Part shown: positions 5,151 through 31,649 of the stretch, piece by piece
Numbering within the stretch: position 1 is the first letter of the stretch
Layout: every line of letters starts with the position of its first letter
Assembly: GCA_021801345.1 (NCBI GenBank)
Contig: JAJYYA010000017.1
Location: 1 to 32,776 of the forward strand
Direction: 5' to 3'
DNA length: 32,776 bases
Source: Nitrospirota bacterium
GTDB taxonomy: Bacteria; Nitrospirota; Leptospirillia; Leptospirillales; Leptospirillaceae
The notes under the pieces: model-generated
Told to the model about the DNA's origin: nothing
Seen by the model: only the letters and a program-made list of their open reading frames with translations
The model's database searches: none
Translations under genes and position numbers: made by a program

Positions 5151-5439
5151 AGTGCCCACCACCATGTCGTTTTTGCGGTCGAATCCACTCCCCTAGTCTC
5201 CTTTTGAACCAGCCGCAAGAGGCGGCCCTTTATCCACGATGTATTATTGGATCTTCCAGACAATTCGCGGGTGTCATTCATTGATAAAAAGGGCTGATCC
5301 AGATAGAGAATTGAAGAGTACATCCTGCTATCGTTTTCTGAGATGATAGGTTGATCTAAGACATTAACATCAAAAGAAAGGAAACAGTGTTCAGATCATT
5401 ACTATCCTCAATCTTGCCCAAAAATTCAAGTCATTCGTC
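5151..5439. other. Intergenic region upstream of the PHP/SMC-like gene
   Basis: No convincing coding frame is seen on either strand. The segment is AT-richer than its surroundings and must carry the promoter of the minus-strand PHP/SMC-like operon, but I could not single out a clear -35/-10 pair. The part from about 5320 to 5400 is rich in short A/T runs. Beyond 5440 the sequence becomes similar to the ISAs1-type end seen at 13670-13775. Confidence 0.5.
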
Positions 5440-7836: not shown

Positions 7837-7883
7837 TTGATTTTTACAATAATTTAGCAATACAATTTTAATAGTATTGCTAA
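7837..7883 (+). promoter_or_regulatory. Promoter with inverted-repeat operator before nucleotidyltransferase 1
   Basis: A perfect inverted repeat, TTAGCAATAC (7854-7863) and GTATTGCTAA (7874-7883), is separated by ten A/T bases. It overlaps a plausible -10 (TACAAT, 7861-7866), with TTGATT at 7837-7842 as the -35 (18-nt spacing). It ends just before the ribosome-binding site AGGAG at 7886-7890. The geometry suggests a dimeric repressor site; the regulator is unknown. Confidence 0.6.
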
Positions 7884-7897
7884 TCAGGAGATCCTCA

Positions 7898-14621: not shown

Positions 14622-14738
14622 GCAGATCGTCCAGCGCGAGGGAAAACCGAACTTGACCACGCATCTCCAGAAGGCGTTCGTGCGATTTCGTCACATCAGC
14701 AGAATACAATATCAGAATCCATACACACATACGGCATG
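14622..14738 (-). pseudogene. vapB scar: C-terminus joined to its own promoter region
   Basis: The segment starts with GCAGATCGTCCAGCGCGAGG (as at 13410), which codes for the last residues GQVRFSLALDDLR of VapB. After AAGGCGTTC it jumps to CGATTTCGTCACATCAGCAG, equivalent to the promoter region at about 13616-13635. It continues through ATACA.TATCAGAATCCATACA. About 170 bases holding most of vapB and its start are deleted, and no toxin gene remains. Confidence 0.8.
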
Positions 14739-14825
14739 ATGCGACACCATCTTAAATCGATCGGACCACTTGGGGATCACGCCCCGGGCCATTCCTTCCA
14801 GAAGACAAGAACCAACTATATTGTA

Positions 14826-14854
14826 TTGACATATTTTTTTTATGCATTTACAAT
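14826..14854 (+). promoter_or_regulatory. brnTA promoter, probably leaderless
   Basis: A perfect -35 TTGACA (14826-14831) and -10 TACAAT (14849-14854) are separated by 17 bases. The brnT ATG at 14862 begins only seven bases after the -10, at or next to the expected transcription start, and no Shine-Dalgarno sequence lies between. The mRNA should therefore be leaderless. Confidence 0.7.
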
Positions 14855-14861
14855 AAAAAAA

Positions 14862-15125
14862 ATGGAAATTGAATTTGACACAGACAAACGCGACAAAACA
14901 CTGCGTGCGCGAGGATTGGATTTTGCGCGGGCAGGTGAGATTTTTGCCGATGTGATCATAACCATAGAAGATATCCGCAAAAACTATGGCGAAACTCGGT
15001 GGATGACTGTGGGCGCAATTGACGGTCGAATAGTTATTTTGATTTGGACGCCGCGCGGCGCGGTTCGCCGCATTATTTCCATGAGGTACGCCAATGAACG
15101 CGAAATTACCCGATACACCCAGTGA
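14862..15125 (+). CDS. brnT: BrnT-family ribonuclease toxin
   Basis: 87 residues from the ATG at 14862. BrnT has a RelE-like fold and inhibits translation by RNA cleavage. The sequence follows the family: MEIEFDTDKRDKTLRARGLDF, then FARAGEIFAD, then ETRWMTVGAIDGRIVILIW and the C-terminal RIISMRYANEREITRY with the basic and aromatic residues expected at the active site. It comes before the antitoxin and overlaps brnA by 32 bases. The upstream extension of the frame crosses the promoter and is not likely translated. Confidence 0.93.
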   Translation: MEIEFDTDKRDKTLRARGLDFARAGEIFADVIITIEDIRKNYGETRWMTVGAIDGRIVILIWTPRGAVRRIISMRYANEREITRYTQ

Positions 15126-15396
15126 AGTATGGGTTGATCAAGACGATGCACCAGAACTGACCGACGAAGATTTCGCTCGGGGAACTTGGATGATCGGAGA
15201 TCGAGTTGTATCAAAAAATGAAGCTCAATCCGTTATCAAAGAGAAACTAGGCCGGGGTCGTCCGCTAGTGAATGGTGTGCATAAATCAGTCGTGACGATC
15301 CGGCTCGATGATGACGTGCTCGCGCAGTTGCGTGCTACCGGCAAAGGATGGCAAACTCGGCTTAACGATCACTTGAGAAAATGGGTCAGTCTATAG
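15094..15396 (+). CDS. brnA: BrnA-family antitoxin
   Basis: 100 residues, starting inside the end of brnT. BrnA antitoxins neutralise BrnT and repress the operon with a C-terminal ribbon-helix-helix. Here one sees the N-terminal DDAPELTDEDFARGTW segment that contacts the toxin, GRGRPLVNGVHKSVVTIRLD, and the C-terminal DDDVLAQLRATGKGWQTRLN RHH part. Both genes look intact. The left end of an ISNCY-type element begins about 20 bases after the stop. Confidence 0.93.
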   Translation: MNAKLPDTPSEVWVDQDDAPELTDEDFARGTWMIGDRVVSKNEAQSVIKEKLGRGRPLVNGVHKSVVTIRLDDDVLAQLRATGKGWQTRLNDHLRKWVSL

Positions 15397-15418
15397 TGGA
15401 TGGAAGAGTCTAGGCACA

Positions 15419-16674
15419 GTAATTCAAAATTTAAAGTCTTATTTTGCTGCAACAACTTACGCTTACACCTAAAAACGCTGAACACATCGCGCGATTTCAG
15501 GCATTCTTGGGGCATGGCGACCCTTCGGATTCCGACCCCCTCTTCGAACATTCCCCCCAGCAAGGCCCAAGGCCTTGTCGACAGGATTGCCGCCGCTTTC
15601 CGGGAACTTCCGGATTCCAGAAAGCCCGGGAACAATACGAAGTCCTCGATGCACGATGCGGCATGCTCGGCTTTCTCCGTGTTCTTCACCCAGTCTCCCT
15701 CCTTCCTGGCCTTCCAGAGGAATCTTGCGCTGACGACCGGCCGGAACAATGTGCAGTCCCTCTTCGGCGTGCATGACGTTCCGACGGACGTCCAGATCCG
15801 GAACATTCTGGATTCGGTCGAGGCGAAGGAGATGGCCCCGCTGATCCAGGGGGTCGGAGACACTCTCTGGGCCGAGGGATGTCTGTCGGATTACCAGGTC
15901 TTGAACGGGAGTGTTCTGATCGCCCTGGACGGAACCGACACCTTCTCCTCAGACAGCGGGATCCACTGCCCCTCCTGCCATGTGACCCATCGTTCGGACG
16001 GGAGCGTCCAGCATCGTCACATCGCGGTCACCCCGGCCCTGGTGGCCCCCGGAGAGCCCCGGGTCGTGCCTCTTCCCCCGGAGTTCGTCGTTCCCCAGGA
16101 TGGTCACGCCAAACAGGACTGCGAGATCCGGGCCGCCTCCCGCTGGATCGACGCCTGGGGGGCCCACTATGCCCCCTGGGGGGTCACCCTTCTGGGGGAC
16201 GACCTCTATGCCCATCAGCCCTTCTGCGAGAAGGTGAAGGCGGCCGGATTCCATTTCCTCTTCACCTGCAAGCCCGCGTCCCATCCAACCCTCACCGAAT
16301 GGGTCGACGACTTCACCCGCTCCGGGCAGATCGGAACCCACAGCGTCATCCTCGCCAGGAGTCAGGGGAAGCCCAAGGGCAAGCGGATTCCCAAGGTCGT
16401 CCGGGAGCGCTGGTCCTTCCGCTTTATGGCCGATCTTCCGCTCCGCGACGCGGACGACGCCCTTCTGGCGAACTGGTTCGAACTCACCGTCACCGATGAA
16501 GAGACCGACAAGGTCCTCTACCTGAACTCCTGGATCACCGATCATCCGATCACCTTCGACACGCTCGTCGATCTTGCCAAGGCGGGCCGGGCTCGATGGA
16601 AGATCGAGAACGTGCGACGAGCTATGCTCGTCAGAAATTGTTCGATGCAACAATCTGTTGAATCTGTTGCATAG
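15419..16674 (+). mobile_element. ISNCY-type element, right part missing
   Basis: The left end (from about 15419) is shared with the shorter copy at 12463-12735, so the left boundary is supported. The transposase gene starts at 15514 (MATLRI), giving 386 residues to the stop at 16674. DDE residues are seen in LIALDGTDTFSS, TLLGDDLYAHQPFCE and ARWKIENV. Right after this last Glu the sequence leaves the family (usually a longer tail with HNFGHG) and ends in an unrelated stretch, RRAMLVRNCSMQQ. Thus the C-terminus and right end were lost near 16612. The protein may be expressed but should not transpose. The ISNCY label is from memory of the motif pattern. Confidence 0.72.
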
Positions 16675-16942
16675 AGAACCGTCTGTTCCTTCAGACGGAA
16701 CCTCACCAGATGGGCATTGATGATAACGTCTTTGTCCAAAGCTCTGGTGACAATGTACCGGAAGCCGATGAAAAAGATCGCTCTCGGGTCGTTCCGGATT
16801 TTAAACCTCTCCTCGACTTGTGGGGAGGAGGCAGACCTATCCTTCGTTCTCCTAATTGTCTTGTCTTTATCGTAGAATTAAGTCCATACTTTAAATCATC
16901 ATTTGATGCCTATAATAGATGCATAATTAGAAGGAAGAACCC
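16675..16942. other. Scar region and vapBC promoter
   Basis: 16700-16790 contains a small piece of the unidentified repeat (GCCGATGAAAAAGATCGCTC at 16764-16783). A minus-strand coding-like run at 16680-16735 (NAHLVRFRLKEQTVL) is not recognised. The last part is AT-rich and has TATAAT at 16911-16916 with no good -35. A purine-rich AAGGAAG at about 16931-16937 can serve as ribosome-binding site for the antitoxin gene at 16943. Confidence 0.45.
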
Positions 16943-17152
16943 ATGAGAACAACCTTGAACATTGAAGATGAACTCTTGGACAGGGCCCGGCGGGTGAGCG
17001 GACTGAAAGAAAAGACGGTCCTGGTCCGTGAGGGTCTGAAAGCCCTGATCGAACGTGAAAGCGCAAGGCGTCTGGCTCTTCTTGGAGGCAGCGAACCCCA
17101 GATGGAAACGATTCCCCGCCGTCGACCCAGATCCGGGATCGGTTCGGCATGA
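16943..17152 (+). CDS. vapB: VapB-type antitoxin (PF09957-like)
   Basis: 69 residues. The start MRTTLNIEDELLDRARRVSG is the standard opening of this antitoxin group, followed by KEKTVLVREGLKALIERESARRL and a short toxin-binding tail. It overlaps vapC by four bases. The promoter lies in the AT-rich block just upstream (TATAAT at 16911-16916). Confidence 0.93.
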   Translation: MRTTLNIEDELLDRARRVSGLKEKTVLVREGLKALIERESARRLALLGGSEPQMETIPRRRPRSGIGSA

Positions 17153-17520
17153 TTCTGGTCGACAGTTCGGTCTGGATCGACCATCTGCGAAAGGGAGAAT
17201 CGGTCTTGGGGGAACTTCTGAATGCCTGTCGGGTGATGATCCATCCATTCATCGTCGGAGAAATTGCCTGTGGAAACCTGAAAAACAGAGACGAAATCCT
17301 CACCCTCCTCCAGAATCTGCCGGCCATGCCATGCGCCACTGATGACGAGGTCTTGATTTTCATCGAAAAGAAGGGTCTCCCGGGAAAAGGGATCGGCTAC
17401 CTTGATGCCCACCTCTTGACCTCGGTCTCGCTGTCGGGAACCGGGTTTCTCTGGACTCGCGACAAGCGGTTGCTCTCCGTCGCCCAATCCCTCGGTCTCT
17501 CCTTTTCGGCAGGGCAGTGA
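17149..17520 (+). CDS. vapC: VapC-type PIN-domain toxin
   Basis: 123 residues. PIN motifs are complete: ILVDSSVWIDHLR with D5, E38 in FIVGEIACG, YLDAHLLTSV with D86 and LWTRDKRL with D105. It should be a Mg-dependent ribonuclease acting on tRNA or rRNA. The last third of the gene and 90 bases downstream recur as a relic at 11229-11485, where the Trp codon of LWTRD has become a stop. The start overlaps the VapB stop. Confidence 0.94.
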   Translation: MILVDSSVWIDHLRKGESVLGELLNACRVMIHPFIVGEIACGNLKNRDEILTLLQNLPAMPCATDDEVLIFIEKKGLPGKGIGYLDAHLLTSVSLSGTGFLWTRDKRLLSVAQSLGLSFSAGQ

Positions 17521-17598
17521 TAGGAGGGCAAAGAGTCGCCCGCTGTGACTGGCAGGCCGGCCAGATTTTTCTCAATTCGAAGGAGACTCCTCTCGGCA

Positions 17599-17796
17599 AG
17601 AGACGTCAGGAAAGGAAAAGCCGATGAAAAAGATCGCTCTCATGTCTTCGACCCTCTCTCCGGTCCCCAGATGCCGGACCGAAAAGTTTGGCGAAGATTA
17701 AGGGGGGCTTTCGGCGGGTGACGCAGACAATCCAAAGAGCTCAAAGGTCCAGAGGAGATGCAAGGAGCCAGACGCCTTCGGGACTTCCTGAAAGAA
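17599..17796. repeat. Unidentified 0.2-kb repeat, copy 2
   Basis: Near-identical partner of 14263-14461. It lies directly downstream of vapC and upstream of the abiE promoter. The whole 17521-17885 stretch has no recognisable gene. The abiE promoter should lie near TTGTATTTTTGTCTGTTTTT at about 17851-17870, but the exact boxes are unclear. Confidence 0.8.
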
Positions 17797-17885
17797 TTTG
17801 TGCCGTCCCGGAATACAGCATTCGGGGCTCCCAACCCATACGCAAAAGCCTTGTATTTTTGTCTGTTTTTGCATATGATTCGGGA

Positions 17886-18704
17886 ATGGTTTCCATTGAT
17901 CAATTCGTCGATGACCGGCTTCTCCATGGTCGGGCGCACTTCAACCGCGAAGAGGCGCTGGCTGCGGTCGACCTGAGTCCTGATGGCCTGACCGCCGCGA
18001 TCACACGGCTGGTGAAAAAACAGCGGCTGGCCAACCCTCGCCATGGCTTCTACCTGATCCTGCGTCCCGAGGACCAGATGACCGGCGCTCCCGATCCCGC
18101 GCGTTGGATCGATCCCTTGATGAAGTACCAGTGTCTCGACTACCGCATCTCGCTGTTGCGTGCTGCGGCCTTCCACGGTTCATCGCATCAGGCCGCCATG
18201 GTCTTTCAGGTGGTCGTTCCCAAGCAATTGCGGGACTTCGAAATCGGACGCCATCGCCTCCAATTTCTTTACCAGACCCCTAAGGCCTTCGCAAAGCTCA
18301 ATCAACCCGATTGGCTCGACAGGATGAAAAGTGACGCCGGTTTTGCCCAAGTGGCTGGCGTCGAACTGACGTTGCTGGATTGCATACGCTACTTCCACAA
18401 GGCCGCCGGCATTAACGGCGTTGCTCAGATCGCCAAGGACATTGGAGCCAAGGCCAAGCCGCGCGTACTTGCCAAAGCGGCCATTGCCTATGAAAACTCG
18501 TCCGTGCGACGGCTGGGCTACCTGCTCGAACGGGCAGGGCACACGCGCCAAGCCAACGCGCTGGCGGCCTTCGCCGAGAAGTCGAAGACAGCGGTGCTGC
18601 TGGATCCTGCCGTCAAGCCCCTCCTTGGATCCCTATCCGGGCGTTACGAGAAAGACGACCGGTGGAAGCTCGTCATCAACGAACCCGTGGAGATCGACTT
18701 TTGA
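17886..18704 (+). CDS. abiEi: AbiEi-family antitoxin
   Basis: 272 residues from the ATG at 17886; the frame is open further upstream but that part belongs to the repeat. The N-terminal winged-helix segment is FNREEALAAVDLSPDGLTAAI and KKQRLANPRHGFYLIL, followed by RWIDPLMKYQCLDYRISLLRAA, FQVVVPKQLRDF and a C-terminal domain with VRRLGYLLERAGH. This agrees with AbiEi antitoxins of type IV TA/abortive-infection systems, which repress the abiE promoter and counteract the nucleotidyltransferase toxin. It appears intact. Codon use (many CGC, GCG and CTG) differs from neighbours, pointing to transfer. The stop overlaps the abiEii start by four bases (TTGA). Confidence 0.9.
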   Translation: MVSIDQFVDDRLLHGRAHFNREEALAAVDLSPDGLTAAITRLVKKQRLANPRHGFYLILRPEDQMTGAPDPARWIDPLMKYQCLDYRISLLRAAAFHGSSHQAAMVFQVVVPKQLRDFEIGRHRLQFLYQTPKAFAKLNQPDWLDRMKSDAGFAQVAGVELTLLDCIRYFHKAAGINGVAQIAKDIGAKAKPRVLAKAAIAYENSSVRRLGYLLERAGHTRQANALAAFAEKSKTAVLLDPAVKPLLGSLSGRYEKDDRWKLVINEPVEIDF

Positions 18705-19486
18705 TTCCGGCTTCCTACATCCAGGATTGGAGCACGAAAGCCCCTTGGGCCGACGCGCGTCAGATCGAGCAGGATCTGATCATCAGCCGCGCGTTGTGCG
18801 ACCTGATGAACGCGCCGATGCTAAAAGACAAGATCGCTTTCCGCGGTGGCACCGCAATCAACAAACTATTGTTCAAGCAGCCGCTTTGTCATGGCTCGGC
18901 AAGTGCAATCGTGAGCAGGCCGGACATTCTATGCACCTGGTATTTAAGTTCACGCCCGAAGTTGATCCGCAGGCAGAACTGATGCTCAAGGTCGAGATCA
19001 ATACCCGCGAGCACGAGCGCCTGTTCGGCATCAGGGCTTACCCCTTCGCAGTAGACAGTGACTGGTATCAGGGCAAGACCGAGATCGCGTCCTTCGAACC
19101 CGAAGAGCTGTTCGGCACCAAGCTGCGTGCGCTGCTGCAGCGACGCAAGAACCGCGACCTCTTCGATCTGCACCATGGGCTCAACCAGCTCGCCATCGAG
19201 ACAAGCTCATCGCCTGTTCGACCACTACCTGGCGCTTGAAGGCAAACACATCACGCGCGCCGTTGCCGAGCAGATCATGCTGGAAAAGCTCACACGCAGT
19301 CTGACCGAAGACATCGCGCCACAACTGCCGGCCGGCGTCCGCTTCAACGACGACGATGCGATACAGGCTTTCGAGCGCGTCTGGGAGGAACTCATCGTCG
19401 GCATCAAAGGCGATGCCTGGAAGCTGACCGACAAAGCGATCGAAGAACTGCGCGCAAAGAAATATCCGGGCCTATTGAGCCGGTAA
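18701..19486 (+). pseudogene. abiEii: AbiEii-family nucleotidyltransferase toxin, catalytic part deleted
   Basis: The gene starts with a TTG at 18701 (LIPASYIQDWSTKAPWADARQ). It reads well up to AFRGGTAINKLLFKQPL near 18887. There the frame changes, and LGKCNREQAGHSMHLVFKF follows at once. In normal members the G-S/T motif GGT is followed within a few residues by the metal-binding block of the type RYSEDIDL; that block and more are missing. A second frameshift near 19200 separates KNRDLFDLHHGLNQLA from the C-terminal HYLALEGKHITRAVAEQIM. Intact AbiEii is about 290-310 residues. Without the Asp pair the toxin cannot be active. Confidence 0.88.
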
Positions 19487-19530
19487 GGGGATACCCTGTA
19501 TTTGGGGAGCCTGGCAACTTCACGGTTTTG

Positions 19531-19770
19531 ATGTTGCAACAATGTGACGGGATTTCTCCCTGGGAGATCGCCGGAGCCCTCGACCCCGACAGCCTCCGGT
19601 TCCTGAACACGGAGACGATCGGCCTGTCGTTCGAGAAAAGTCACATGGATCTCGTAGTGGAGTGCCGGATCTCCGGAACCCTCTCCCAGCTCTATCTGCC
19701 AATCGAGCACAAGTCCTCTCCCGACCCGGAGGTTTTCCTCCAGATGCTCCGGTACATGGATGCCTCCTCT
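19531..19770 (+). pseudogene. Rpn/YhgA-type PD-(D/E)XK nuclease, fragment
   Basis: About 80 codons contain the core of the Transposase_31/Rpn family: SLRFLNTETIGLSFEKSHMD, then LVVECRISGT and LYLPIEHKSSPDPEVFLQML. The Asp of SHMDLVVE and E-x-K of IEHKSS fit the PD-(D/E)XK active site of these recombination-promoting nucleases. The N-terminal 30-40 residues and the whole C-terminal domain are absent, and sequence of a minus-strand aminopeptidase follows directly. Confidence 0.8.
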
Positions 19771-19774
19771 CATT

Positions 19775-20690
19775 TCCCAACCAGGGGGAGAGGACCAACC
19801 CCCGCGCCCGGTCGAAGAGGGCCGGGTACGGGATCCGGGGAAGCGAATACAGGAGCTTGTTCTTTTCTCCCTGAATGTCGATCCGGGAGGTCAGCGCCAC
19901 GACAAAGTCGAAGGCCGCGGCCCCTCCCTGGCGCGATTGCCCCCTGGAAGACCGCGAAGCGAAGGTCGGCGGGAAGATCTGCGGGATCCTCCCGGTATTC
20001 GGAAAAGCGGCGGACAGCCTCCTCCAGGATCGACGCCTTCCCGAAGCGGACCAGAAATCCCAGAAAGCTCGACCGGAGAAGGCGCCGCTGATGGGACTCC
20101 TTCTCCGCGGGCAAGAATCCCAAGCGGTCGAAGGCGGGGCGGACCAGGGCCGCCCCCCACCGGCGAAACGTCGTCTCCCCCTCCTTCAGGGGCCAGGGCC
20201 CAGGGCCCCAGAGCCCAGGCCCCGTCGATCGCGAACAGGGTCCCGGCGATGTCCGACCGGACGGCGCAGGAGCTCTCCTACTTCATCGACTCAAGATGCG
20301 ACACAAAAGTCCCCGATCGGGACCAGCTCCCGACCGGACGAAGACGAAGAGGTCGTTTTCCAGAATCAGGCGGGGAAGGGGCGAGAGGCGCCCCTCACGG
20401 AGGGCCCTCGCCGGTCCGGCATAAAGGGCTCCATAGAAGAGCCCCCGGACATCCCCCGTCTGTCCGGAGCGGACATTGCCCCGGTCGGACCGGGGGGCCT
20501 CCCGGGGATCGCCGACGGGCGTTTTCTTGGGAGAAAGGCGAACGGCCTCCCTCCCCTCCTCCGAGACCCCGGTCATGAGAAGCCAGACGGGAGAGGAGGA
20601 TGGAGGATTTGGACTTCCGGGCCAGGTGCTCCTCCCTGCGGATGAAAAAATCTTGCTGGAGGAGGCGGATCCCGCTAAAAGGTGCCAAAG
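19775..20690 (-). pseudogene. M1-family aminopeptidase (PepN/ERAP1_C-like), C-terminal half, decayed
   Basis: Minus-strand reading over several frames gives a piece resembling the end of the third domain (GNVRSGQTGDVRGLFYGALYAG, cf. the family text NVGQTGFYRV.YD). It continues with REGRLSPLPRLILENDLFVFV and the ERAP1_C-like region: RPAFDRLGFLPAEKESHQ, RRLLRSSFLGFLVRFGKASI, then EYREDPADLPADLRFAVFQ, and finally EKNKLLYSLPRIPYPALFD. The zinc-binding peptidase domain is not present. Frameshifts are frequent. Parts of the first 350 bases recur twice at 23757-24105 and 25270-25515. The identification rests on the remembered order of helical repeats. Confidence 0.7.
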
Positions 20691-20722
20691 TCAATTGCGA
20701 CTATGAATACAACGGAGTACAG

Positions 20723-20756
20723 TTTTACCACGGATACCAAGCTATCCGTGGTAAAA
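20723..20756. repeat. Perfect 14-bp-stem hairpin
   Basis: TTTTACCACGGATA (20723-20736) pairs perfectly with TATCCGTGGTAAAA (20743-20756) around the loop CCAAGC. It lies about 60-100 bases before the omegaRNA scaffold. No U-tract follows beyond the AAAA/TTTT ends of the stem. It might be a bidirectional terminator, a transposon-end hairpin or a protein-binding palindrome. Confidence 0.75.
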
Positions 20757-20785
20757 TCGAGGAGGTTCACACAGCGTCAACCACC

Positions 20786-20801
20786 CCGCCGTGAACGGCG
20801 G
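20786..20801. repeat. CCGCCG/CGGCGG hairpin at the left border of the iscB element
   Basis: The hairpin CCGCCG-TGAA-CGGCGG, preceded by CAACCACC and followed by AGCTTGAAAGG, resembles subterminal hairpins of IS200/IS605-type elements. It sits just left of the presumed omegaRNA scaffold, so it may mark the element's left end or the right end of an older element. Confidence 0.5.
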
Positions 20802-20814
20802 AGCTTGAAAGGAG

Positions 20815-21080
20815 GTTCGACAAGCTCGGGTTGACCAGAAAGAGCGGTATCCAACCCGCTACGCTGACCATAGGCAAGAAGACCCACCCCGGGATGCTTC
20901 CTCAGTTCCGGGCTCTGGAACGTGCGGATGCAGACAACCGCGAGGGCAAGGACGAAACGGTCCGCACGAGGGGGAGAGATCCCCTAAAGCCGGTGGTCAC
21001 CATTTTCGAGGGGAGACGCTTCGCATGAAGCGCGTTACGGCGGAAAGCGCCAGTGCAACGTAAGTTTTTGAGGAGTTTCC
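20815..21080 (+). ncRNA. omegaRNA (HEARO-type RNA) of the IscB element
   Basis: The roughly 265 bases before iscB have no coding frame but are rich in stem-forming blocks. The segment CCCACCCCGGGATGCTTCC, CAGTTCCGGGCTCTGGAACG and TGCGGATGCAGAC (20882-20937) strongly resembles the conserved core of known omegaRNAs (GCACCC.GGGAT..CCCAGT.CCCGGAACTGC.TAGCGGATGC). An upstream GCGGTATCCAACCCGCTACG stem (20843-20862) and downstream GAGGGGGAGAGATCCCCT stem (20969-20986) fit the model. The 5' boundary and guide cannot be fixed by eye; in characterised systems the guide is the sequence directly 5' of the scaffold, here somewhere near 20800-20820. The RNA would direct IscB to a matching DNA target. Confidence 0.8.
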
Positions 21081-22460
21081 ATGCAGGTTTTCGTACTCGA
21101 CAAACACAAAAAGCCTCTCATGCCCTGCCACCCGGCCCGGGCACGGGAGCTTCTCGGGAACGGGAAGGCGGTGGTCCACAAGAGGGCCCCCTTCACGATC
21201 CGGCTCAAAGACCGGGTCGGGGGCGAGGTCCAGCCGGTCCGGATCAAGATCGATCCGGGATCGAAGACCACCGGGATCGCCCTGGTCCGGGAGGAGACGG
21301 TCGTCTCCCCCGAGGCGGGAGAGGCGGAGACGACCGCCCACGTCCTCTTCCTGGCGGAGCTTACCCACCGGGGCGGAGCGATCCGGGACCGGCTGACCGC
21401 CCGGAGAGCCTTCAGAAGACGACGACGGTCGAAGCTTCGGCACCGGGCCCCGCGCTTCGACAATCGGACAAGAACAGAGGGTTGCCTTCCGCCCTCCCTC
21501 CAGCACCGGGTCGACACGACCGCCTCCTGGGTAACGCGTCTCCGGAAGAGTGCTCCCGTGTCCGGCATCAGCCAGGAGCTGGTCCGGTTCGATATGCAGA
21601 AGGTGGAAAATCCGGAGATTTCCGGAGCCGAGTATCAGCAGGGGACGCTGGCCGGCTACGAGGTTCGGGAGTATCTGCTTGAGAAGTGGGGGCGTTCCTG
21701 CGCCTATTGCGGGAAGACGGACGTTCCTCTGGAGATCGATCATATCCATCCCCGGTCGAAGGGCGGGTCGGACCGCGTCGCCAACCTGACGCTGGCCTGC
21801 CGCCCCTGCAACGAGAAGAAGGGGAACCGTCCCGTCGAGGCGTTTCTGGAAAAGAAGACGGAGTGTCTCAAAAAGATCCTCGCCCGGGCCAAGGCGCCCC
21901 TCCGGGACGCCGCCGCGGTGAACGCCACCCGGTGGAATCTCTTCAAGAGGCTTAAGCTGACGGGTCTTCCCGTCGAAACGGGTTCAGCCGGGCGGACGAA
22001 ATGGAACCGGACCCGGCTCGGGCTCCCGAAGACCCATTCTCTTGATGCGGCTTGCGTCGGAGACGTGGACCGCATTGAGGGCGGGAACCGTCCCGTCCTG
22101 AGCATAAAGGCCACGGGACGGGGAAGCTACCAGAGAACCCGCCTCGATGCCTTCGGGTTCCCGAGGGGGTTCCTCACCCGAAAGAAAGCACACTTTGGAT
22201 TTGCGACCGGGGATCTGGTCCGGGCCGTTGTGACGACGGGCAAGAAGATCGGCACCTATGTCGGACGGGTGGCTGTCCGGGCTTCGGGGAGTTTCAACCT
22301 CCAAGCCGGATCGGGGCTGGTTCAGGGGATTTTCCACAAGGTTTGCCGGCTTCTTCAGAGAGCCGACGGGTACGGGTATTCATTGGCAACGCCCAACAGA
22401 AAGAAGAGCGCATTCCTCCCCGGCATCAATGCCGGGGTTTCCATTGCGCGCAGAGGATGA
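21081..22460 (+). CDS. iscB: IscB RNA-guided nuclease (RuvC-like/HNH)
   Basis: 459 residues, start preceded by AGGAG. The PLMP-type N-terminus (DKHKKPLMPCHPARARELL, residues 7-25) and RRXRR domain are followed by RuvC-I (KIDPGSKTTGIAL with D58), an arginine-rich bridge helix (RRAFRRRRRSKLRHR, about 108-122) and RuvC-II (ELVRFD with E166). The HNH domain has C207/C210, DHIHP with H221 and H223, N235, and C240/C243. RuvC-III is KTHSLDAACVG with H319 and D322. All catalytic residues are present and the length fits the 400-500 of the family. With the upstream omegaRNA it should be a working RNA-guided DNA endonuclease. The extreme C-terminus (PGINAGVSIARRG) is encoded across a hairpin that probably marks the element's right end. 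No TnpA gene is present. The ATGA at the end overlaps the next gene. Confidence 0.95.
   Translation: MQVFVLDKHKKPLMPCHPARARELLGNGKAVVHKRAPFTIRLKDRVGGEVQPVRIKIDPGSKTTGIALVREETVVSPEAGEAETTAHVLFLAELTHRGGAIRDRLTARRAFRRRRRSKLRHRAPRFDNRTRTEGCLPPSLQHRVDTTASWVTRLRKSAPVSGISQELVRFDMQKVENPEISGAEYQQGTLAGYEVREYLLEKWGRSCAYCGKTDVPLEIDHIHPRSKGGSDRVANLTLACRPCNEKKGNRPVEAFLEKKTECLKKILARAKAPLRDAAAVNATRWNLFKRLKLTGLPVETGSAGRTKWNRTRLGLPKTHSLDAACVGDVDRIEGGNRPVLSIKATGRGSYQRTRLDAFGFPRGFLTRKKAHFGFATGDLVRAVVTTGKKIGTYVGRVAVRASGSFNLQAGSGLVQGIFHKVCRLLQRADGYGYSLATPNRKKSAFLPGINAGVSIARRG
22418..22437. repeat. Hairpin at the right end of the iscB element
   Basis: CCCCGGCAT (22418-22426) and ATGCCGGGG (22429-22437) form a perfect 9-bp stem around CA. 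Hairpins of this kind stand at the right end of IS200/IS605-type elements. It lies inside the last codons of iscB and 20 bases before the start of the next gene, suggesting that the element inserted right in front of that gene. Confidence 0.65.
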
Positions 22461-23488
22461 AAAATATACCGGCAATAGCGCAGACATTGTGCGCCGAAAT
22501 TTTTGACAACCTGTCTGGACTCCCGTCAGACATCCCCAAGGGCGGTTATTTTTTTGTAAAAACAGTAAGCGGACGGTCGTATGTTTATCACCGTATAGAC
22601 CGTCACGGTCGCACATACGACACGTCAATGGGCGAAGCCACCGAAGATCTAACGGCCAAAATTGAGCGAGTCAAAAAATCTCGCGAACATCTGGCCAGAT
22701 TGGCTGCCGCAGCAAAGGGCGCAGGCGCCGCGGAATGCGACAAGGTGGTCTGGCTGCTTGTGCGACAGCTGTACGACATTGGTTTTTTCGAAGCTGGCGG
22801 GTTAATTATTGGAACCAACGCGTTTATGGCTTATCAAAACGTTCTCGGCGTCAAGTGGCAGACGGGGACGGACAGCCTTCAAATATGCCAAACTATGGAC
22901 CTCGACGTCGCGTGGAACAACCGGTCTACTGTTGCGGTACCGACACATCTGGCAGAACGACTGACAGAAATGTTGGATGGGCTTGGTTTCGTGCCACAGT
23001 ATTCGACGACATCTAAAGCGGGAACGCCGGCATACAAAAACTCAGCGGGGTATTCCTTCGAGGTGCTGACGCCGGAGGTCGGCAGACCTGGGCCCCCCGT
23101 TGTTCCGGCCCCCAAGCTGGGCAGACATGCACAGTCGTTGAGATTCCTCGATTTTCTTATAAAAGACCCCCTCCCCGCCATTGCTTTTCGAGGAGAAAGC
23201 GCCGTTAAGCTGTTGGTGCCGGCACCGGCAAGATTTGCAATACACAAAATCGCCATTTCTACCGTGAGAAACAATCCATACAAGAAACAGAAAGATCTTA
23301 TCCAAGCATCCAGCCTCGCCGAGATATTGGCCCGCGAGGATCCAGTTAGTCTAGCAAGCTCGTATCGCGAGTTCGTTGGAAGAGGGCCTGCCTGGCGGAA
23401 TATGCTTTCGAGTGGTGTGGCAAGCTTGCAGACAAATGCCAGAGCGGCTATTTGCTCCGTTGCAGCTCGTGGCCACGACGACATATAG
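22457..23488 (+). CDS. PF12281-type (GSU2403-like) nucleotidyltransferase-fold protein 2
   Basis: 343 residues from the ATG at 22457, which overlaps the iscB stop (ATGA). The same family marks as in the gene at 7898 are seen: LIIGTNAFMAYQNVLGVKWQ, MDLDVAW with the two aspartates, FEVLTPEVG and ARFAIHKIAIS. N-terminal SGRSYVYHRIDRHGRTYDTS corresponds to RPYWYLQISGKDRRLEYVYV of the other copy. Overall similarity between the two is clearly partial, so they are distant homologues, not a recent duplication. Codon use is more A/T-rich than in iscB. No ribosome-binding site stands at a good distance, so translation may depend on coupling to iscB. The biochemical role is not known to me. Confidence 0.85.
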   Translation: MKNIPAIAQTLCAEIFDNLSGLPSDIPKGGYFFVKTVSGRSYVYHRIDRHGRTYDTSMGEATEDLTAKIERVKKSREHLARLAAAAKGAGAAECDKVVWLLVRQLYDIGFFEAGGLIIGTNAFMAYQNVLGVKWQTGTDSLQICQTMDLDVAWNNRSTVAVPTHLAERLTEMLDGLGFVPQYSTTSKAGTPAYKNSAGYSFEVLTPEVGRPGPPVVPAPKLGRHAQSLRFLDFLIKDPLPAIAFRGESAVKLLVPAPARFAIHKIAISTVRNNPYKKQKDLIQASSLAEILAREDPVSLASSYREFVGRGPAWRNMLSSGVASLQTNARAAICSVAARGHDDI

Positions 23489-23547
23489 CGTGCTTGGTTT
23501 TGCAATACGCTGTGCTCCGTGGGTTTGTTTCCTATTGTAGCCGGAGG

Positions 23548-23652
23548 ATGATCGAATACTGGACGGCTTTTACCGTGTTTTCCGTTGTCATGGCTATAAT
23601 TTCCGTTGGTCTGATCGTGTTCTTGAAGAAAACGACCGAACACCCCCTATAA
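23548..23652 (+). CDS. Possible 34-residue membrane peptide
   Basis: From the ATG at 23548 the frame gives a short N-terminus, one strongly hydrophobic segment (TAFTVFSVVMAIISVGLIVF) and a basic tail KKTTEHPL. That is the layout of a small single-pass membrane protein or a type I-like toxin. GGAGG directly touches the ATG, which is too close for a good ribosome-binding site. Support is weak; it may be chance. Confidence 0.25.
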   Translation: MIEYWTAFTVFSVVMAIISVGLIVFLKKTTEHPL

Positions 23653-23756
23653 TTCCATTTCAGTACACTTCGCAACTCACGTTCACATTGATCGTCAGTA
23701 GGCGTCACGCACTTGCCACCATAACGCCAATCTTGGTGCAGGATAAGGAACACATA

Positions 23757-24105
23757 GTCCCCGACCGGACGAAGGCGAAGAGGTCGTTTTCCAGGGTCCG
23801 GCGGGGAAGGGGCGAGAGGCGCCCCTCACGGAGGGCCCTCGCCGGTCCGGCATAAAGGGCTCCATAGAAGAGCCCCCGGACATCCCCCGTCTGTCCGGAG
23901 CGGACATTGCCCCAGTCGGACCGGGGGGCCTCCCGGGGATCGCCGACGGGCGATTTCTTGGGAGAAAGGCGAACGGCCTCCCTCCCCTCCTCCGAGACCC
24001 CGGTCATGAGAAGCCAGACGGGAGCGGAGGATTTGGACTTCCGGACAAGGTGCTCCTCCCTGCGGATGAAAAAGACCTTGGACTATGCCGATCCCGCGAA
24101 AAGGC
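23757..24105 (-). pseudogene. M1 aminopeptidase fragment, second copy
   Basis: About 350 bases nearly the same as 20330-20690: GACGAAG.CGAAGAGGTCGT, the CCCCTCACGGAGGGCCCTCG block, GGACATCCCCCGTCTGTCCG, and GGATGAAAAA near 24063. It directly follows the mazF gene on the minus strand. It holds only the segment around FYGALYAG and RLSPLPR of the peptidase relic and cannot encode a protein. Confidence 0.8.
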
Positions 24106-24159
24106 AATCAGGTCTCGGCTTTCTTATCGGGCGCATTGTACCAAACCGGGCAAGGCTTT

Positions 24160-24498
24160 CTATCGATTGCCGATCAATGCCACGATTTTTGCCCGGACGT
24201 CATCGAGTTCGGCAGGAGACACACGGCCCTTCCGACTGGCCTTCCGAACTCGCCAATCAAGGCTTTTCACCTGGTCGGCCAACGTGACGCTTTCTCGATC
24301 GCCCGCAATCAGGACCTCGAACGGATACCCCTTGATCTGCGTCGTCATGGGACAGCAAAGCATCAGACCGCTCTTCGCATTGTATGTCGCAGGGCTGAGC
24401 ACGAGGGCCGGACGGTGTCCCGCTTGCTCATGGCCGGCTTGCGGATCGAAATGCAGCCAGACGATGTCGCCCGCTTCGGGCACATAGCCACCCACCAT
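24160..24498 (-). CDS. mazF: MazF/PemK-type endoribonuclease toxin
   Basis: 112 residues. The family opening is clear: YVPEAGDIVWLHFDPQAGHEQAGHRPALVLS, with the conserved GHRPALVLSP, then GLMLCCPMTTQIKGYPFEV with the catalytic-loop Thr/Ser and the C-terminal LADQVKSLDW. This agrees with MazF/ChpB toxins that cut single-stranded mRNA at short sequences. It begins one base inside the mazE stop (TGATG) and is complete. Fragments of the same operon occur at 11000-11230 and 25560-25665. Confidence 0.95.
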   Translation of the reverse strand: MVGGYVPEAGDIVWLHFDPQAGHEQAGHRPALVLSPATYNAKSGLMLCCPMTTQIKGYPFEVLIAGDRESVTLADQVKSLDWRVRKASRKGRVSPAELDDVRAKIVALIGNR

Positions 24499-24740
24499 CA
24501 GAATGACTCCTTCCCGACCGCCGGACCAAAGTCGGCTTCGGCATGCACGTTGTCCGGCGTAATGCCGGCGAGCAATCGAGTCAGGTCATACTCTTTCCGA
24601 CGGATCGGCTCGATGACGATGCGTCCCTTTTCTTCGCGCACGTCCACGATGTCGTCCAATCGAAGATTGGCCGCTTCCATGACAGCGACGGGAATGCGCA
24701 CGGATGCGCTGTTCCCCCACTTTTTCACAATGACTTTCAT
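24498..24740 (-). CDS. mazE: MazE-type antitoxin
   Basis: 80 residues with a strong AAGGAGGA ribosome-binding site. The AbrB-like DNA-binding domain is typical: MKVIVKKWGNSASVRIPVAV, LRLDDIVDVREEKGRIVIEP; the C-terminal LLAGITPDNVHAEADFGPAV is the toxin-binding part seen in MazE/PemI. It precedes mazF in one operon. A perfect 14-bp palindrome at 24790-24803 in the promoter region is a likely binding site. Confidence 0.95.
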   Translation of the reverse strand: MKVIVKKWGNSASVRIPVAVMEAANLRLDDIVDVREEKGRIVIEPIRRKEYDLTRLLAGITPDNVHAEADFGPAVGKESF

Positions 24741-24789
24741 GCGGTCTCCTCCTTAATTCCCATCCCTGCACTCTAGCAGAACCAAAACA

Positions 24790-24803
24790 AATGTTGCAAC
24801 ATT
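24790..24803. promoter_or_regulatory. Palindromic operator candidate for mazEF
   Basis: AATGTTGCAACATT is a perfect 14-bp palindrome located 50 bases upstream of the mazE start. The position suits autorepression by MazE/MazF. Confidence 0.5.
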
Positions 24804-24829
24804 GTAGATACACCCTAATTCCGCGATAG

Positions 24830-25268
24830 TTTGACCGAGGGGATTCCTCGAAAAAATTCCCGATTTTTTAAAATTTTCTCGGGACCCCCTCCCGGATTGC
24901 CTCAGGCAGATCCCTCCGCGAGGGGGAACTCCTTGTCACCGCCTCCCTGCCATTCTCCTCGATGTGCTCCACTTATTTCTTTGCGTATCCTTATTGCACA
25001 ATGCTTTATAAGACTGCTCGCAGAGATTGTCAAAAGACGCACCGCTCCTTCGTTTTCCGGTACCACTGTCCTTTCCCGGGGGAGAGGAGGAGCCTATCCA
25101 CTCGCACATAACTGAAGGCACCTCATCCGGATACCGGAAAGGAATGCGAGATCCTTCGCCGAGACCGCACGCTTTAGTGTCAGACCGCGGGCATGCCGCA
25201 CGATCTTGCCCGGCATCCCGAAGAGCTTCTACCGGAGGGTCGGAAGCGTCCAGGAGTCGCAGGCGGCC
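24830..25268 (-). pseudogene. IS1380-type transposase C-terminus and element end
   Basis: On the minus strand from about 25262 to 25094 one reads SWTLPTLR, a stop where Trp is expected, then KLFGMPGKIVRHARGLTLKR and FLSGIRMRCLQLCASG-stop. The run RWKL.....K.VRHAR....L is how DDE group 1 (IS1380-family) transposases end. The rest of the gene is missing: at about 25270 an aminopeptidase fragment begins. 24830-25093 carries no gene and could be the end region of the element; it contains a TCGAAAAAATTCCCGATTTT stretch but no clear terminal repeat. Confidence 0.6.
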
Positions 25269-25269
25269 G

Positions 25270-25515
25270 GAAGATCCACCCGGACATCCCCCGTCTGTCC
25301 GGAGCGGACATTGCCCCGGCCGGACCGGGGGGGATCCCGGAGGATCGCCGACGGGCGTTTCCTCGGGAGAAAGGCGAACGGCCTCCCTCCCCTCCTCCGA
25401 GACCCTGGTCATGAGAAGCCAGACGGGAAAGGAGATTCCCGACTTCCGGGCCAGGTGCTCCTCCCAGCGGATGAAAAAGACCTTGGACTATGCCGATCCC
25501 GCGAAAAGGCATCAG
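25270..25515 (-). pseudogene. M1 aminopeptidase fragment, third copy
   Basis: Similar to 20445-20660 and 23870-24090, beginning at CCCGGACATCCCCCGTCTGT and ending after ATGAAAAAGACCTTGGACTA and TGCCGATCCCGCGAAAAGGC. The last 60 bases agree with 24055-24105 more closely than with 20640-20690, so copies two and three share a more recent origin. Confidence 0.8.
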
Positions 25516-25665
25516 ATCTCGGCTTTCTTATCGGGCGCATTGTGCCGCAGCGTGCCGGGCTGTCTCTCGATTGCCGACCTCAGTATCATCAGTGCGCCAC
25601 GACTTTTGCCCGGACGTCATCGCGTTCGGAAGGAGACGCACGGCTCATCCGACTGCCCTATTCAC
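25516..25665 (-). pseudogene. mazF 3'-end fragment
   Basis: Similar to 24105-24235: TCTCGGCTTTCTTATCGGGC at 25517-25536, then TGCCACGA-like and TTTTGCCCGGACGTCATCG. On the minus strand it retains RDDVRAKVVA, equivalent to LDDVRAKIVA of MazF. Only the final 35 codons or so remain. Confidence 0.75.
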
Positions 25666-26229
25666 GAGGGAGGACTGTCCGTGTAACGACGTAGCGGTCC
25701 CGTTGGCGGGAAAAAGATCTTTTGGCGTCTGGGGCCGAAGTGGTCTGGCCCGGACCTCTTCCGGCCGAGACGGGAATCCCGCCCTCCCGAGCCCAAAGGG
25801 ATCAGGAAGACCGGAGGGAAGGAAGGGATTTCCGGGGAAGGGCCGGGGAGAGCGTCGAGATTAGGAGCGGATCCTTGTGAACCGCCGGGCTTCTTCCATC
25901 GGCGTGCTTCTTCCATTCTCATGTCTTTGAAAGAGGCTGGTGCGCGGGGGCGTCTCTGGTGGCTGGGGTGATTATGAGGGGTGTGGCGTCCTAAGTCCAC
26001 GTTTCGAACCTCCTCCCCTTCCCTATAGGGCCCTATGGGTTCTATAGGGATTTGAGGATCTTGAGAGAGGCTTCCGGGCATTCCCTTTCCCAAATGCCGA
26101 CCGGAAGGATTTTTTCCGATCGGCGCCGTTTGTCGAAAGAGCTCTCCTGTGCTAGCATAAGGCCATTTAGGGCATTTCTTTTAATATTCACCTCGTGACG
26201 AAGGCGTCCATAGGAGGCGAAGGATCGAT
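25666..26229. other. Gene-free region before the aldo/keto reductase
   Basis: No gene recognised. Around 26014-26052 the motif CCCTATAGGG and related CTATAGGG pieces occur repeatedly within 40 bases, giving a self-complementary cluster. The stretch 26150-26200 is AT-richer and probably carries the promoter of the reductase gene; its ribosome-binding site is AAGGA at 26219-26223. Confidence 0.45.
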
Positions 26230-27219
26230 ATGGAGGAGCGCTATCTGGGGCGAAGCGGCCTCAAGGTCTCGGCGATGGGGCTGGGATGCATGGGGATGTC
26301 CGAGTTCTACGGCAAGGGAGATCCGGAGGAGTCGATCGCCACGATTCACCGGGCGATCGACCTCGGGATCACCTTTTTCGACACGGCCGACATGTATGGC
26401 CACGGGGCCAACGAGGAGCTTTTGGGCCGGGCGCTCAAGGGGAAGCGGGACAATGTGGTGATCGCCACCAAGTTCGGCATCGTCCGGGACCCCTCGGATC
26501 CTTCGAAGCGGGGGATCAGCGGTCGTCCCGACTATGTAAAAAAGGCCTGCTCAGCCTCCCTCGCCCGGCTGGGAGTGGAGACGATCGATCTCTACTACCA
26601 GCACCGGGTCGACCCGGAGGTTCCCATCGAGGAGACGGTCGGGGCGATGGCGGAGCTTGTGAAGGAGGGGAAGGTGCGCTATATCGGTCTCTCCGAACCC
26701 GGAGCCCAGACTCTCCGGCGCGCCCACCGGATCCATCCCGTGGCAGCCGTTCAGAGCGAGTACTCCCTCTGGTCGCGCGAGGTCGAGACGGAGATCCTAC
26801 CCGCCTGCCGACAGCTGGGGGTGGGGTTTGTTCCCTACAGTCCTCTGGGTCGGGGGTTTCTGACCTCCCGGATCCGATCGCTCAAGGACCTTCCTGAGGG
26901 GGACTACCGGGTCCACACTCCGAGGTTCTCGCCGGAGAACCTCGAAAAGAACACGCATCTTCTCGCCATCATCGACGAGATCGCGAAGAAGAACCAGGTG
27001 ACGCCGGCCCAGGTCGCCCTGGCCTGGATCTATGCCCAGGGTCCGGAGATCGTCCCGATTCCCGGAGCCAAGTCGAAAGTCCATCTCGAGGAGAACGTCC
27101 AGACGCTCAAGCACCCCATTTCCTTTGCAGACGTGGTCCGTCTTGCCGAGGCATTCCCTCCGGGGGTGGCCGCAGGGGAACGCTATCCGACGGAGATGAT
27201 GGAGGCGGTGGGGAGGTAG
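26230..27219 (+). CDS. Aldo/keto reductase (AKR13/YakC-like)
   Basis: 329 residues, starting after AAGGATCGAT. It is a cytoplasmic NADP(H)-dependent oxidoreductase with a TIM-barrel fold. The catalytic tetrad is D51 and Y56 in [10 protein letters not shown]81 in IATKFG, and H125 in YYQHRVD. The N-terminal [20 protein letters not shown] and the cofactor-binding C-terminal [16 protein letters not shown] agree with members annotated as general aldehyde/ketone reductases. Physiological substrate cannot be deduced. The gene is complete, stands alone, and is the only metabolic gene here without signs of damage. Confidence 0.95.
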
Positions 27220-27611
27220 GGGGGAGAAGAGGTTCATGATGCTCGACATCACACCTTGGCTCGATATAGTGAGCACCTCCATAAGAGAGGTGGAGGCTTC
27301 AAAAGAGTGGGAGCCGCTCAAAGCGGCATGGAAAAGGATCATCCGCCCCCCCAAAGGGGGGCACCGAGGCTCTTGATCTGATCCGACAACCACCTTTTTC
27401 GGGCCCGCATTCATTATTGGACAACCCCGAGGCCAACGTGAATCGAACTTTCAAACCCTGTTTTGTCTTGCCGGGTGGGTTCTGGGCGTACGGCTGACTT
27501 TCCCGGATTGGACAGTCCGATTGCGATTTCTTTCCGTCAATATTCGGGAAGTCCGCGACAGAACTTTTACCCGGATCTTCTCCGATTCGCGATCTCGTCC
27601 ATTCGAATCAT
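27220..27611. other. Gene-free region with IS605-type hairpin
   Basis: No coding sequence recognised. At 27274-27292 a stem CACCTC/GAGGTG is followed by GGAGGCTTCAAA, the same tail as the hairpin at 27694-27712. A GC hairpin (six C and six G around AAA, 27345-27362) lies about 130 bases after the reductase gene and could stop transcription, although no T-run follows. Confidence 0.5.
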
Positions 27612-28508
27612 ATGCGATTTCCGAGATTCCCCGAACGGTTAAACCTTGGGAGTCCACCGCCAGAGGCGGGGGGTTACCCTGGAGATTTAGTCACCTCCAC
27701 CAGCGGTGGAGGCTTCAAATTTGCGGAGACTTTTCCCGATGAGCAGATTCTCTCCGCACTGCGGAGAGAATTGTCGTGGAGCCATCTCAAAGCCTTGATC
27801 TATATCGACGACCCGCTCAAGCGAGATTTTTACATCGAGATGTGCCGACTGGAGCGGTGGTCCTCCCGGCAGTTGCTGGAGCGAATTCAGTCCATGTTGT
27901 TTGAGCGCACGGCGATTTCCCGAAAGCCCGAAGAGACGATCCAGCACGACTTGAAACTGTTGAGAGAGAAAGAACGCGTCTCGCCGGATCTCCTCCTGAA
28001 AGACCCCTATATACTCGACTTCCTCGGATTGGATGATCGCTATCTGGAAAAGGACCTAGAAGAGGCTATTCTGCGTGAGATAGAAAGTTTTTTGCTGGAA
28101 ATGGGAGCGGGGTTTACCTTCGTCGCCCGGCAAAAGCGTCTTTTGGTCGATCACAATGACTATTACATCGACCTCTTGTTCTACAACCGCAAGCTCCGGC
28201 GACTGGTGGCCATCGACCTGAAAATCGGCGATTTTCGCGCCGAATACAAGGGACAGATGGAACTATACCTTCGTTGGCTGGAAAAGCATGAGCAGGAATC
28301 TGGTGAAGCCCCCCCAATCGGGGTCATTTTGTGTGCCGGAAAGACACGGGAGCAGATCGAGCTTCTGGAACTGGACAAGAGCGGTATCCATGTTGCCGAA
28401 TATTTGACGGTTCTCCCATCGCGCGAAGTATTGCAGGCCAAGCTGCACCAGTCGATTGAGAAGGCTCGGCAGCGACTCCTTCCTCATTCCGGAGATAGCG
28501 ACAAATGA
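27612..28508 (+). pseudogene. YhcG/DUF1016-type PDDEXK nuclease, N-terminally truncated
   Basis: The open frame has 298 codons, but only from about 27717 (FAETFPDEQILSALRRELSW) does it match the DUF1016 family. It proceeds with SHLKALIYIDDPLKRDFYIE, SRQLLERIQSMLFERTA, LGLDDRYLEKDLEEAIL and the nuclease core DYYIDLLFYNRKLRRLV and AIDLKIGDF, whose D and D-x-K pattern forms a PD-(D/E)XK site. Full-length members are about 340-370 residues with an N-terminal domain of some 100 residues before FAETFP. That domain is missing and replaced by 35 unrelated codons that include a hairpin. The catalytic domain itself is whole, so a short product may still fold. YhcG-type proteins are linked to DNA processing and to Type I restriction loci. 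Confidence 0.85.
27694..27712. repeat. Hairpin at the junction to the YhcG fragment
   Basis: CCTCCACC-AGC-GGTGGAGG is a perfect 8-bp stem. It is followed by CTTCAAAT and, at once, by the surviving part of the YhcG gene. The same GGTGGAGGCTTCAAA tail occurs at 27290-27304. The form resembles right-end hairpins of IS200/IS605 elements. Confidence 0.65.
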
Positions 28509-28983
28509 CCCTATCTTTTCACTGAAAGCACCACACAAAAGCGCGTTGTTGACCTCTTCCGATGCGAACTTGGGTATCACTTCCTGGGGGGGACCTTAGG
28601 TGACTCTTGGGACAAATTTGGGACAGCGGGCTCTTGGGAGATCTTGGAAGTACCCGGACATGAAGCATCTGAAATAAACGAAAAACTGCGCGCCATCCCA
28701 GAAGTTGGACAAAGGAAGATTTCAATACTGCCTATTTGCCGCAAATCGAAAAACGTAAATGTTAAGATTATTGCTAAACGGGCCCTAAGGGGAGCCACGA
28801 CACCGCAGGCCGAATATTATGACTGTTTGCCGATTTCCGGTCATATTCCGGAGAAGGTTCTCCGGGCTCTGTGGAATCTGTCCCGTGGCAATGCCTGTTC
28901 AACGGCGACCGCATCAATGTCCCCCACCTGAGATTGCCGGAAATACTCGCCGCAGTGGGAAGTTCATGCGAAGGGGATCAGGA
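28509..28983. other. Gene-free region upstream of PHP/SMC-like copy 2
   Basis: Open frames of 90-100 codons exist but show no recognisable protein. 28740-28790 is AT-richer (CGTAAATGTTAAGATTATTG) and may hold the promoter of the downstream operon. The upstream extension of the PHP/SMC-like frame (28819-28983) has unusual composition and no family similarity, so I do not regard it as translated. Confidence 0.5.
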
Positions 28984-31641: not shown

Positions 31642-31649
31642 GGTGGTCG

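What the first reader, a model, noticed from the sequence alone, without database searches (positions are those of the whole stretch)
20815..22460. Complete IscB nuclease with recognisable omegaRNA
All RuvC and HNH catalytic residues are present in the 459-residue protein, and the non-coding 265 bases upstream contain the conserved omegaRNA core. The pair is a candidate for a working RNA-guided DNA nuclease without a transposase gene of its own in the window.
Basis: partly seen in the sequence, partly recalled or inferred. Interest (0 to 1): 0.62.

Follow-up and report, generated by a model that had tools for sequence, protein, structure and literature searches.

The report
IscB element docked at start codon
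This is an intact, ordinary-looking IscB mobile element (a small RNA-guided DNA-cutting enzyme with its guide RNA), but comparing its many copies shows that these elements slip in precisely between a gene's ribosome-binding site and its start codon, which may be how they spread without killing the genes they hit.

Summary
Confirmed: a 459-aa IscB (21081-22460, all five catalytic residues) preceded by a full-length HEARO/omegaRNA (20776-21021, 100 bits). The genome, Leptospirillum-like, carries 14 omegaRNA matches and about ten sizeable IscB copies or contig-split parts of copies. No Y1 transposase was found in it, though 15 of 21 family genomes searched have one.

Comparing copies gives exact ends: 20776-22456, 1681 bp, no target duplication, inserted 5' of ATGA. 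Uninterrupted sites in relatives prove this for three sister copies. Joining the window's flanks gives AGGAGGTTCACACAGC|ATGAAAAATATA: a Shine-Dalgarno plus the start codon of a nucleotidyltransferase gene. The IscB stop codon is the flank's TGA. The predicted guide is the sequence just left of the element and ATGA the adjacent motif, so IscB should cut the empty site.

Thirteen of 21 mapped insertions are start-codon-like against 13% of control ATGA sites (p=2e-7). One ORF-less mini-element sits between Shine-Dalgarno and ATG of single-copy accB. The right end is a covarying hairpin with AAGGAG 5' of it, which could re-supply initiation (inferred; accessibility predictions are mixed).

Known kind of element; the start-codon docking is the part worth testing.

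The parts
20776..22456 (+). Whole IscB element (1681 bp)
   Evidence: ends fixed by comparing copies and by empty sites of three sister copies
20776..21021 (+). omegaRNA / HEARO core
   Evidence: RF02033, 100.3 bits, model 1-211
20760..20775 (+). Predicted 16-nt guide AGGAGGTTCACACAGC, host flank; its AGGAGGT is the native Shine-Dalgarno of the downstream gene
   Evidence: sequence, joined flank; use as guide inferred from IscB biology
21081..22460 (+). IscB, 459 aa; stop codon TGA (22458-22460) lies in the host flank
22401..22406 (+). Position of the conserved AAGGAG Shine-Dalgarno-like motif (AAGAAG in this copy)
22408..22449 (+). Right-end two-part hairpin (stems 22408-22414/22443-22449 and 22418-22425/22430-22437)
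   Evidence: fold and covariation
22457..22460 (+). ATGA: insertion motif and presumed TAM; start codon of the host gene
22457..23488 (+). Host gene, NTP_transf_8 nucleotidyltransferase, 343 aa

Best explanation
An intact IscB (ISC, IS200/IS605-type) mobile element. SHOWN: its ends are 20776 and 22456; it lies 5' of ATGA; sister copies have inserted there without target duplication; the joined flank is a ribosome-binding site plus start codon, and many sister elements occupy start codons in the same way. INFERRED: the omegaRNA takes the host sequence left of the element as its guide, and IscB with this guide cuts unoccupied copies of the same site next to the ATGA TAM, so that the element is retained or copied by repair from the occupied allele. 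Insertion is by a Y1 transposase supplied in trans or since lost, acting on the bottom strand at 5'-TCAT. Docking between Shine-Dalgarno and start codon is tolerated because the downstream gene keeps its reading frame and is still translated, either by coupling to IscB (A-TGA stop/start overlap) or from the element's own Shine-Dalgarno held near the AUG by the terminal hairpin.
For: IscB and HEARO models; catalytic residues; 14 HEARO hits in the genome; same element ends in IscB-bearing and ORF-less copies; empty sites for C31, C69 and C73m align through the junction (best relatives 92, 90 and 85% identity), with no duplicated bases; 13 of 21 insertions start-like vs 12.8% of control ATGA sites, p=2e-7, and 9 of 15 in the family alone, p=2e-5; 9 of 12 non-genic insertions vs 24%, p=3e-4; the same layout in Firmicutes, with GTGA and TTGA starts also used; right-end hairpin covariation; accB single copy and intact behind a mini-element; SD-hairpin-AUG precedent in T4 genes 38 and 25 (PMC3014915); no intact match to the guide plus NTGA elsewhere in the own genome within 3 mismatches.
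Against: No Y1 transposase found in this genome. No empty site for the window copy itself: its downstream gene has no close orthologue in the family genomes. Predicted accessibility of the AAGGAG is mixed and low in the own-genome mini-elements (0.11-0.24); the window copy has AAGAAG. Four of the 15 family insertions are not at start codons (C10, C47, C4, G011). Cutting, guide use and transcription are not tested; no sigma-70-like promoter was found nearby.
Confidence: 0.85

Rival explanations
1. Ordinary purifying selection: the element inserts at any NTGA, insertions inside genes are lost, and the start-codon pattern is only what survives; the right end does nothing for translation.
For: The insertion motif by itself equals a start codon plus A; genic and intergenic insertions also exist (C4, C47, G011, C10).
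Against: Among tolerated (non-genic) sites start-like ones are still enriched, 9 of 12 vs about 24%; separating single-copy accB from its Shine-Dalgarno should be harmful unless something compensates. The non-genic control is one 31-kb stretch only.
Confidence: 0.45
2. Domesticated IscB: the host keeps copies as RNA-guided regulators or defence, using ribosome-binding-site guides.
For: Copies without any detectable transposase; the window is a defence island; guides contain Shine-Dalgarno sequences.
Against: Catalytic residues intact; copies differ in location between relatives, with empty sites; the guide has no other target in the genome; the pattern is that of a mobile element.
Confidence: 0.07
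3. Dead relic family: the element has lost its transposase and the copies are decaying remnants.
For: No Y1 hit in the genome; degenerate pieces and internal stops in some copies.
Against: Several open, catalytically intact copies; near-identical copies breaking contigs; three sites empty in relatives; relatives hold Y1 transposases that could act in trans.
Confidence: 0.15

Closest known systems
IscB/omegaRNA (OMEGA) systems, e.g. OgeuIscB and other IscBs with solved structures
   Same: PLMP-RuvC-bridge helix-HNH architecture, all catalytic residues, omegaRNA directly upstream with a 5' guide
   Different: OgeuIscB reads an NNRR TAM (PMC9640706); here the adjacent motif inferred from the junctions is ATGA. 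Sequence similarity to solved IscBs is mainly in the RuvC/HNH part.
HEARO elements (Rfam RF02033)
   Same: same RNA family at full length; insertion upstream of ATGA/GTGA, which to my recollection the original HEARO description reported (not verifiable in the held library)
   Different: no held paper found that links the motif to start codons
IS200/IS605 and ISC transposons
   Same: no target duplication, hairpin end, tetranucleotide target
   Different: no tnpA in the element or found anywhere in this assembly; HEARO nucleases are known to be rarely next to TnpA (PMC9755519)
IsrB nickase
   Same: NTGA TAM (PMC9581776)
   Different: IsrB lacks the HNH domain that is present here
T4 gene 38/25 initiation regions
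   Same: hairpin between Shine-Dalgarno and AUG shortens the effective spacing (PMC3014915)
   Different: there a phage leader with experimental support; here a transposon end with sequence evidence only

Membership tests
IscB RNA-guided nuclease | IscB domain architecture and family model | tested here: met
   NF040563 461 bits vs cut-off 175; RRXRR and HNH
IscB RNA-guided nuclease | RuvC (D, E, H, D) and HNH (H) catalytic residues | tested here: met
   D58, E166, H319, D322, H221
IscB RNA-guided nuclease | omegaRNA immediately upstream | tested here: met
   HEARO 20776-21021, 100.3 bits
IscB RNA-guided nuclease | Guide-directed DNA cleavage next to a TAM | not testable with these tools
   needs biochemistry; the flank + ATGA arrangement is consistent
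IS200/IS605-type (ISC) transposon | precise insertion next to a short motif without target duplication | tested here: met
   empty sites of three sister copies
IS200/IS605-type (ISC) transposon | subterminal hairpin end | tested here: met
   right-end hairpin with covariation
IS200/IS605-type (ISC) transposon | Y1 transposase encoded by the element or available in the cell | tested here: not met
   0 PF01797 hits in own genome, present in 15 of 21 family genomes searched; draft assembly 96.7% complete, so absence is not absolute. I therefore file it as an IscB element, and as IS200/IS605-like in its ends only.
Structure-assisted Shine-Dalgarno (T4 gene 38 type) | SD brought to functional distance from AUG by a hairpin | tested here: inconclusive
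   geometry fits (8 nt) but predicted accessibility is mixed; no expression data

The most novel reading that the evidence does not exclude
IscB elements of this kind are start-codon specialists: their target/TAM NTGA is the bacterial start codon plus A, they dock between Shine-Dalgarno and AUG, borrow the host's TGA as the IscB stop codon, and carry a terminal hairpin that relays a replacement Shine-Dalgarno to the host AUG, so that even essential genes tolerate them; their guides are therefore ribosome-binding sites, and ORF-less omegaRNA mini-elements ride along on IscB supplied in trans.
Probability: 0.3. Interest if true: 0.72.

Novelty: new member of a known kind. Interest (0 to 1): 0.5.

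Why it matters
IscB is the likely ancestor of Cas9, yet how IscB elements live in genomes without harming the host, and how they move with so little transposase association, is poorly known. A genome with 14 omegaRNA matches, exact element ends, proven empty sites and a predicted guide for each copy makes those questions directly testable. If the right end really restores translation, it explains how a DNA-cutting element can sit at a gene such as accB.

Tried and rejected
(1) The perfect 14-bp palindrome at 20723-20756 was first suspected to be a transposon left end; comparison of copies puts the left end at 20776, so it belongs to the host leader. (2) The window copy's own empty site, sought through its downstream gene: only 28-34% relatives in the family, so empty sites were shown on sister copies instead. 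(3) A Y1 transposase in trans in the same genome: none found. (4) An intact target for the window guide in its own genome: none within 3 mismatches. (5) Viral contigs: only three IscB relatives, all distant. (6) Key papers: Kapitonov 2015 and Altae-Tran 2021 were looked up and are not held; Weinberg 2009 did not turn up in the searches. (8) In one search the palindrome pattern was entered with a 7-nt instead of a 6-nt spacer, so its zero result says nothing.

Full report
OBSERVATION. The ORF at 21081..22460 is real and is an IscB. Aligned to a PDB IscB chain of the OgeuIscB type, with the published residue numbers (PMC9640706), the five catalytic residues are D58, E166, H319, D322 (RuvC) and H221 (HNH); they are invariant in seven aligned copies and relatives. 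The Rfam HEARO model matches 20776..21021 over its whole length at 100.3 bits, gathering score 83.

THE GENOME. The window is one contig of a 2.60-Mb, 96.7% complete assembly. HEARO matches number 14. IscB protein matches number 21 pieces, which include about ten sizeable copies or contig-split parts of copies, some with an internal stop, plus contig-end and degenerate pieces. Related records are Leptospirillum sp. and Nitrospirae bins. Of 396 phylum genomes searched only 21 have HEARO matches, and no other family genome searched has more than 5. Many contigs end inside these elements, as expected for a young repeat family; two contig-end copies are 96% identical over 1.17 kb. No Y1 transposase (PF01797) was found in the genome although 15 of 21 family genomes searched have one. 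Three copies (C4, C59, C73:103476) are mini-elements: omegaRNA and the right end of the element (its last ~60 bp recognisable), without the gene.

EXACT ENDS AND EMPTY SITES. Left flanks are unrelated up to position 1 of the RNA and alike after it. Right flanks are unrelated after a GCGCAGAGG-like end, and the first flank bases are ATGA. Joined flanks of three copies align through the junction to relatives (C31: L083 at 92% and others lower; C69: L104 at 90%, L088 and L107 at 80-81%; C73m accB: L084-L087 at 83-85%), and the element is exactly the extra sequence, with no duplicated bases. In C31 the native start is two codons further upstream (ATGGAC|ATGACA).

WHERE THEY SIT. For the window copy the joined flank is ...TCGAGGAGGTTCACACAGC|ATGAAAAATATACCGG..., a Shine-Dalgarno about 10 nt before the ATG of a 343-aa NTP_transf_8 gene. 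Sister elements sit at the start of a ThiF/MoeB-like gene, a 191-aa membrane protein, a TrlF/PHP-like gene, a signal-peptide protein, accB after efp, and in relatives at genes resembling exonuclease III, a phosphoribosyltransferase and a TPR protein (these names come from reading the translations, not from a family search). A GTG start is used in Desulfofundulus and a TTG start in G006. A mechanical score (Shine-Dalgarno match of at least 4 bp at proper spacing and at least 60 open codons) is met by 13 of 21 insertions and by 12.8% of control ATGA sites, p=2e-7; family only 9 of 15, p=2e-5. The control contains loci chosen around gene starts, so it is inflated rather than deflated. Restricted to non-genic insertions it is 9 of 12 against about 24%, p=3e-4; that control is small and uses a crude ORF caller. 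The right junctions were placed by eye at the NTGA that follows the hairpin, which is a weakness for the distant copies. Non-start insertions exist: C47 (antisense in a gene), C4 (inside a fic-like gene), G011 (inside a gene), C10 (about 27 bp upstream of a start).

THE RIGHT END. The last ~55 bases form a two-part hairpin. Four inner pairs show changes on both sides and the covariation score is 0.165, against at most 0.048 for slid controls. A similar shape recurs in Firmicutes. Just 5' of it lies AAGGAG (AAGAAG in the window copy). If the hairpin folds, 8 nt remain between AAGGAG and AUG in most family copies. T4 genes 38 and 25 use such hairpins, reducing the spacing from 22 to 5 and from 27 to 11 nt (PMC3014915). 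Against it, folding in context leaves AAGGAG only partly free, and mostly paired in the own-genome mini-elements. In most complete family copies the IscB stop codon is the TGA of the host ATGA, so translational coupling is an equally good way to keep the downstream gene expressed. accB is single-copy and intact behind a mini-element, so some such mechanism probably works there.

MECHANISM. From established IscB biology the 5' guide is the flank (here AGGAGGTTCACACAGC), and the adjacent ATGA fits the NTGA TAM measured for the related IsrB (PMC9581776). The occupied site separates guide match from TAM and should be safe; an empty allele should be a target. No intact target within 3 mismatches exists elsewhere in the genome. 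This is the usual retention/homing role; cleavage itself is inferred. The moving enzyme is inferred to be a Y1 transposase in trans or lost.

NOVELTY. Membership in IscB/HEARO is clear. To my recollection the 2009 HEARO description already reported insertion before ATGA/GTGA; I could not check it. The link to start codons, the borrowed stop codon and the Shine-Dalgarno-hairpin end were not found in the held literature, which lacks key subscription papers, so I do not claim priority. The element is filed as a new member of a known kind; the start-codon docking raises the interest above that of a routine IscB.

Noticed in passing
window 6861-7669 (-): A second, degenerate IscB remnant (42-71% identity in pieces, a stop inside), beside an ISAzo13 transposase gene (5579-6835) and a second NTP_transf_8 gene (7877-8953, 32% identical to the one behind the intact IscB).
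   Followed up: partly
window 1378-5165 and 14736-32776: Defence/toxin-antitoxin island: TrlF-family ATPase, two Schlafen/AlbA-HATPase proteins, BrnT/BrnA, AbiEi/AbiEii, a YhcG-type PD-(D/E)XK protein (PADLOC PDC-S02), and an AAA/SMC-like ATPase with a Ppl match.
   Followed up: partly
window 16679-16831 (+): Group II intron catalytic RNA piece (RF02012, 68 bits) just after a 424-aa ORF (15400-16674) with no Pfam hit.
   Followed up: no
window 20723-20756: Perfect 14-bp inverted repeat (TTTTACCACGGATA/TATCCGTGGTAAAA) in the leader of the nucleotidyltransferase gene, possibly an operator.
   Followed up: partly
L123 (G010:C6) and L009 (own C8): The last 50 bases of left flank before the omegaRNA are identical in two species, so this insertion is shared by descent or recent transfer.
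   Followed up: no
L011 1501-1929: An ORF-less omegaRNA mini-element between the Shine-Dalgarno and start codon of single-copy accB, downstream of efp.
   Followed up: yes
window 22412-22456: From an AUU 5 nt after the AAGGAG position the right end is open and in frame with the host ATG; a read-through or AUU-started N-terminal extension is conceivable.
   Followed up: no
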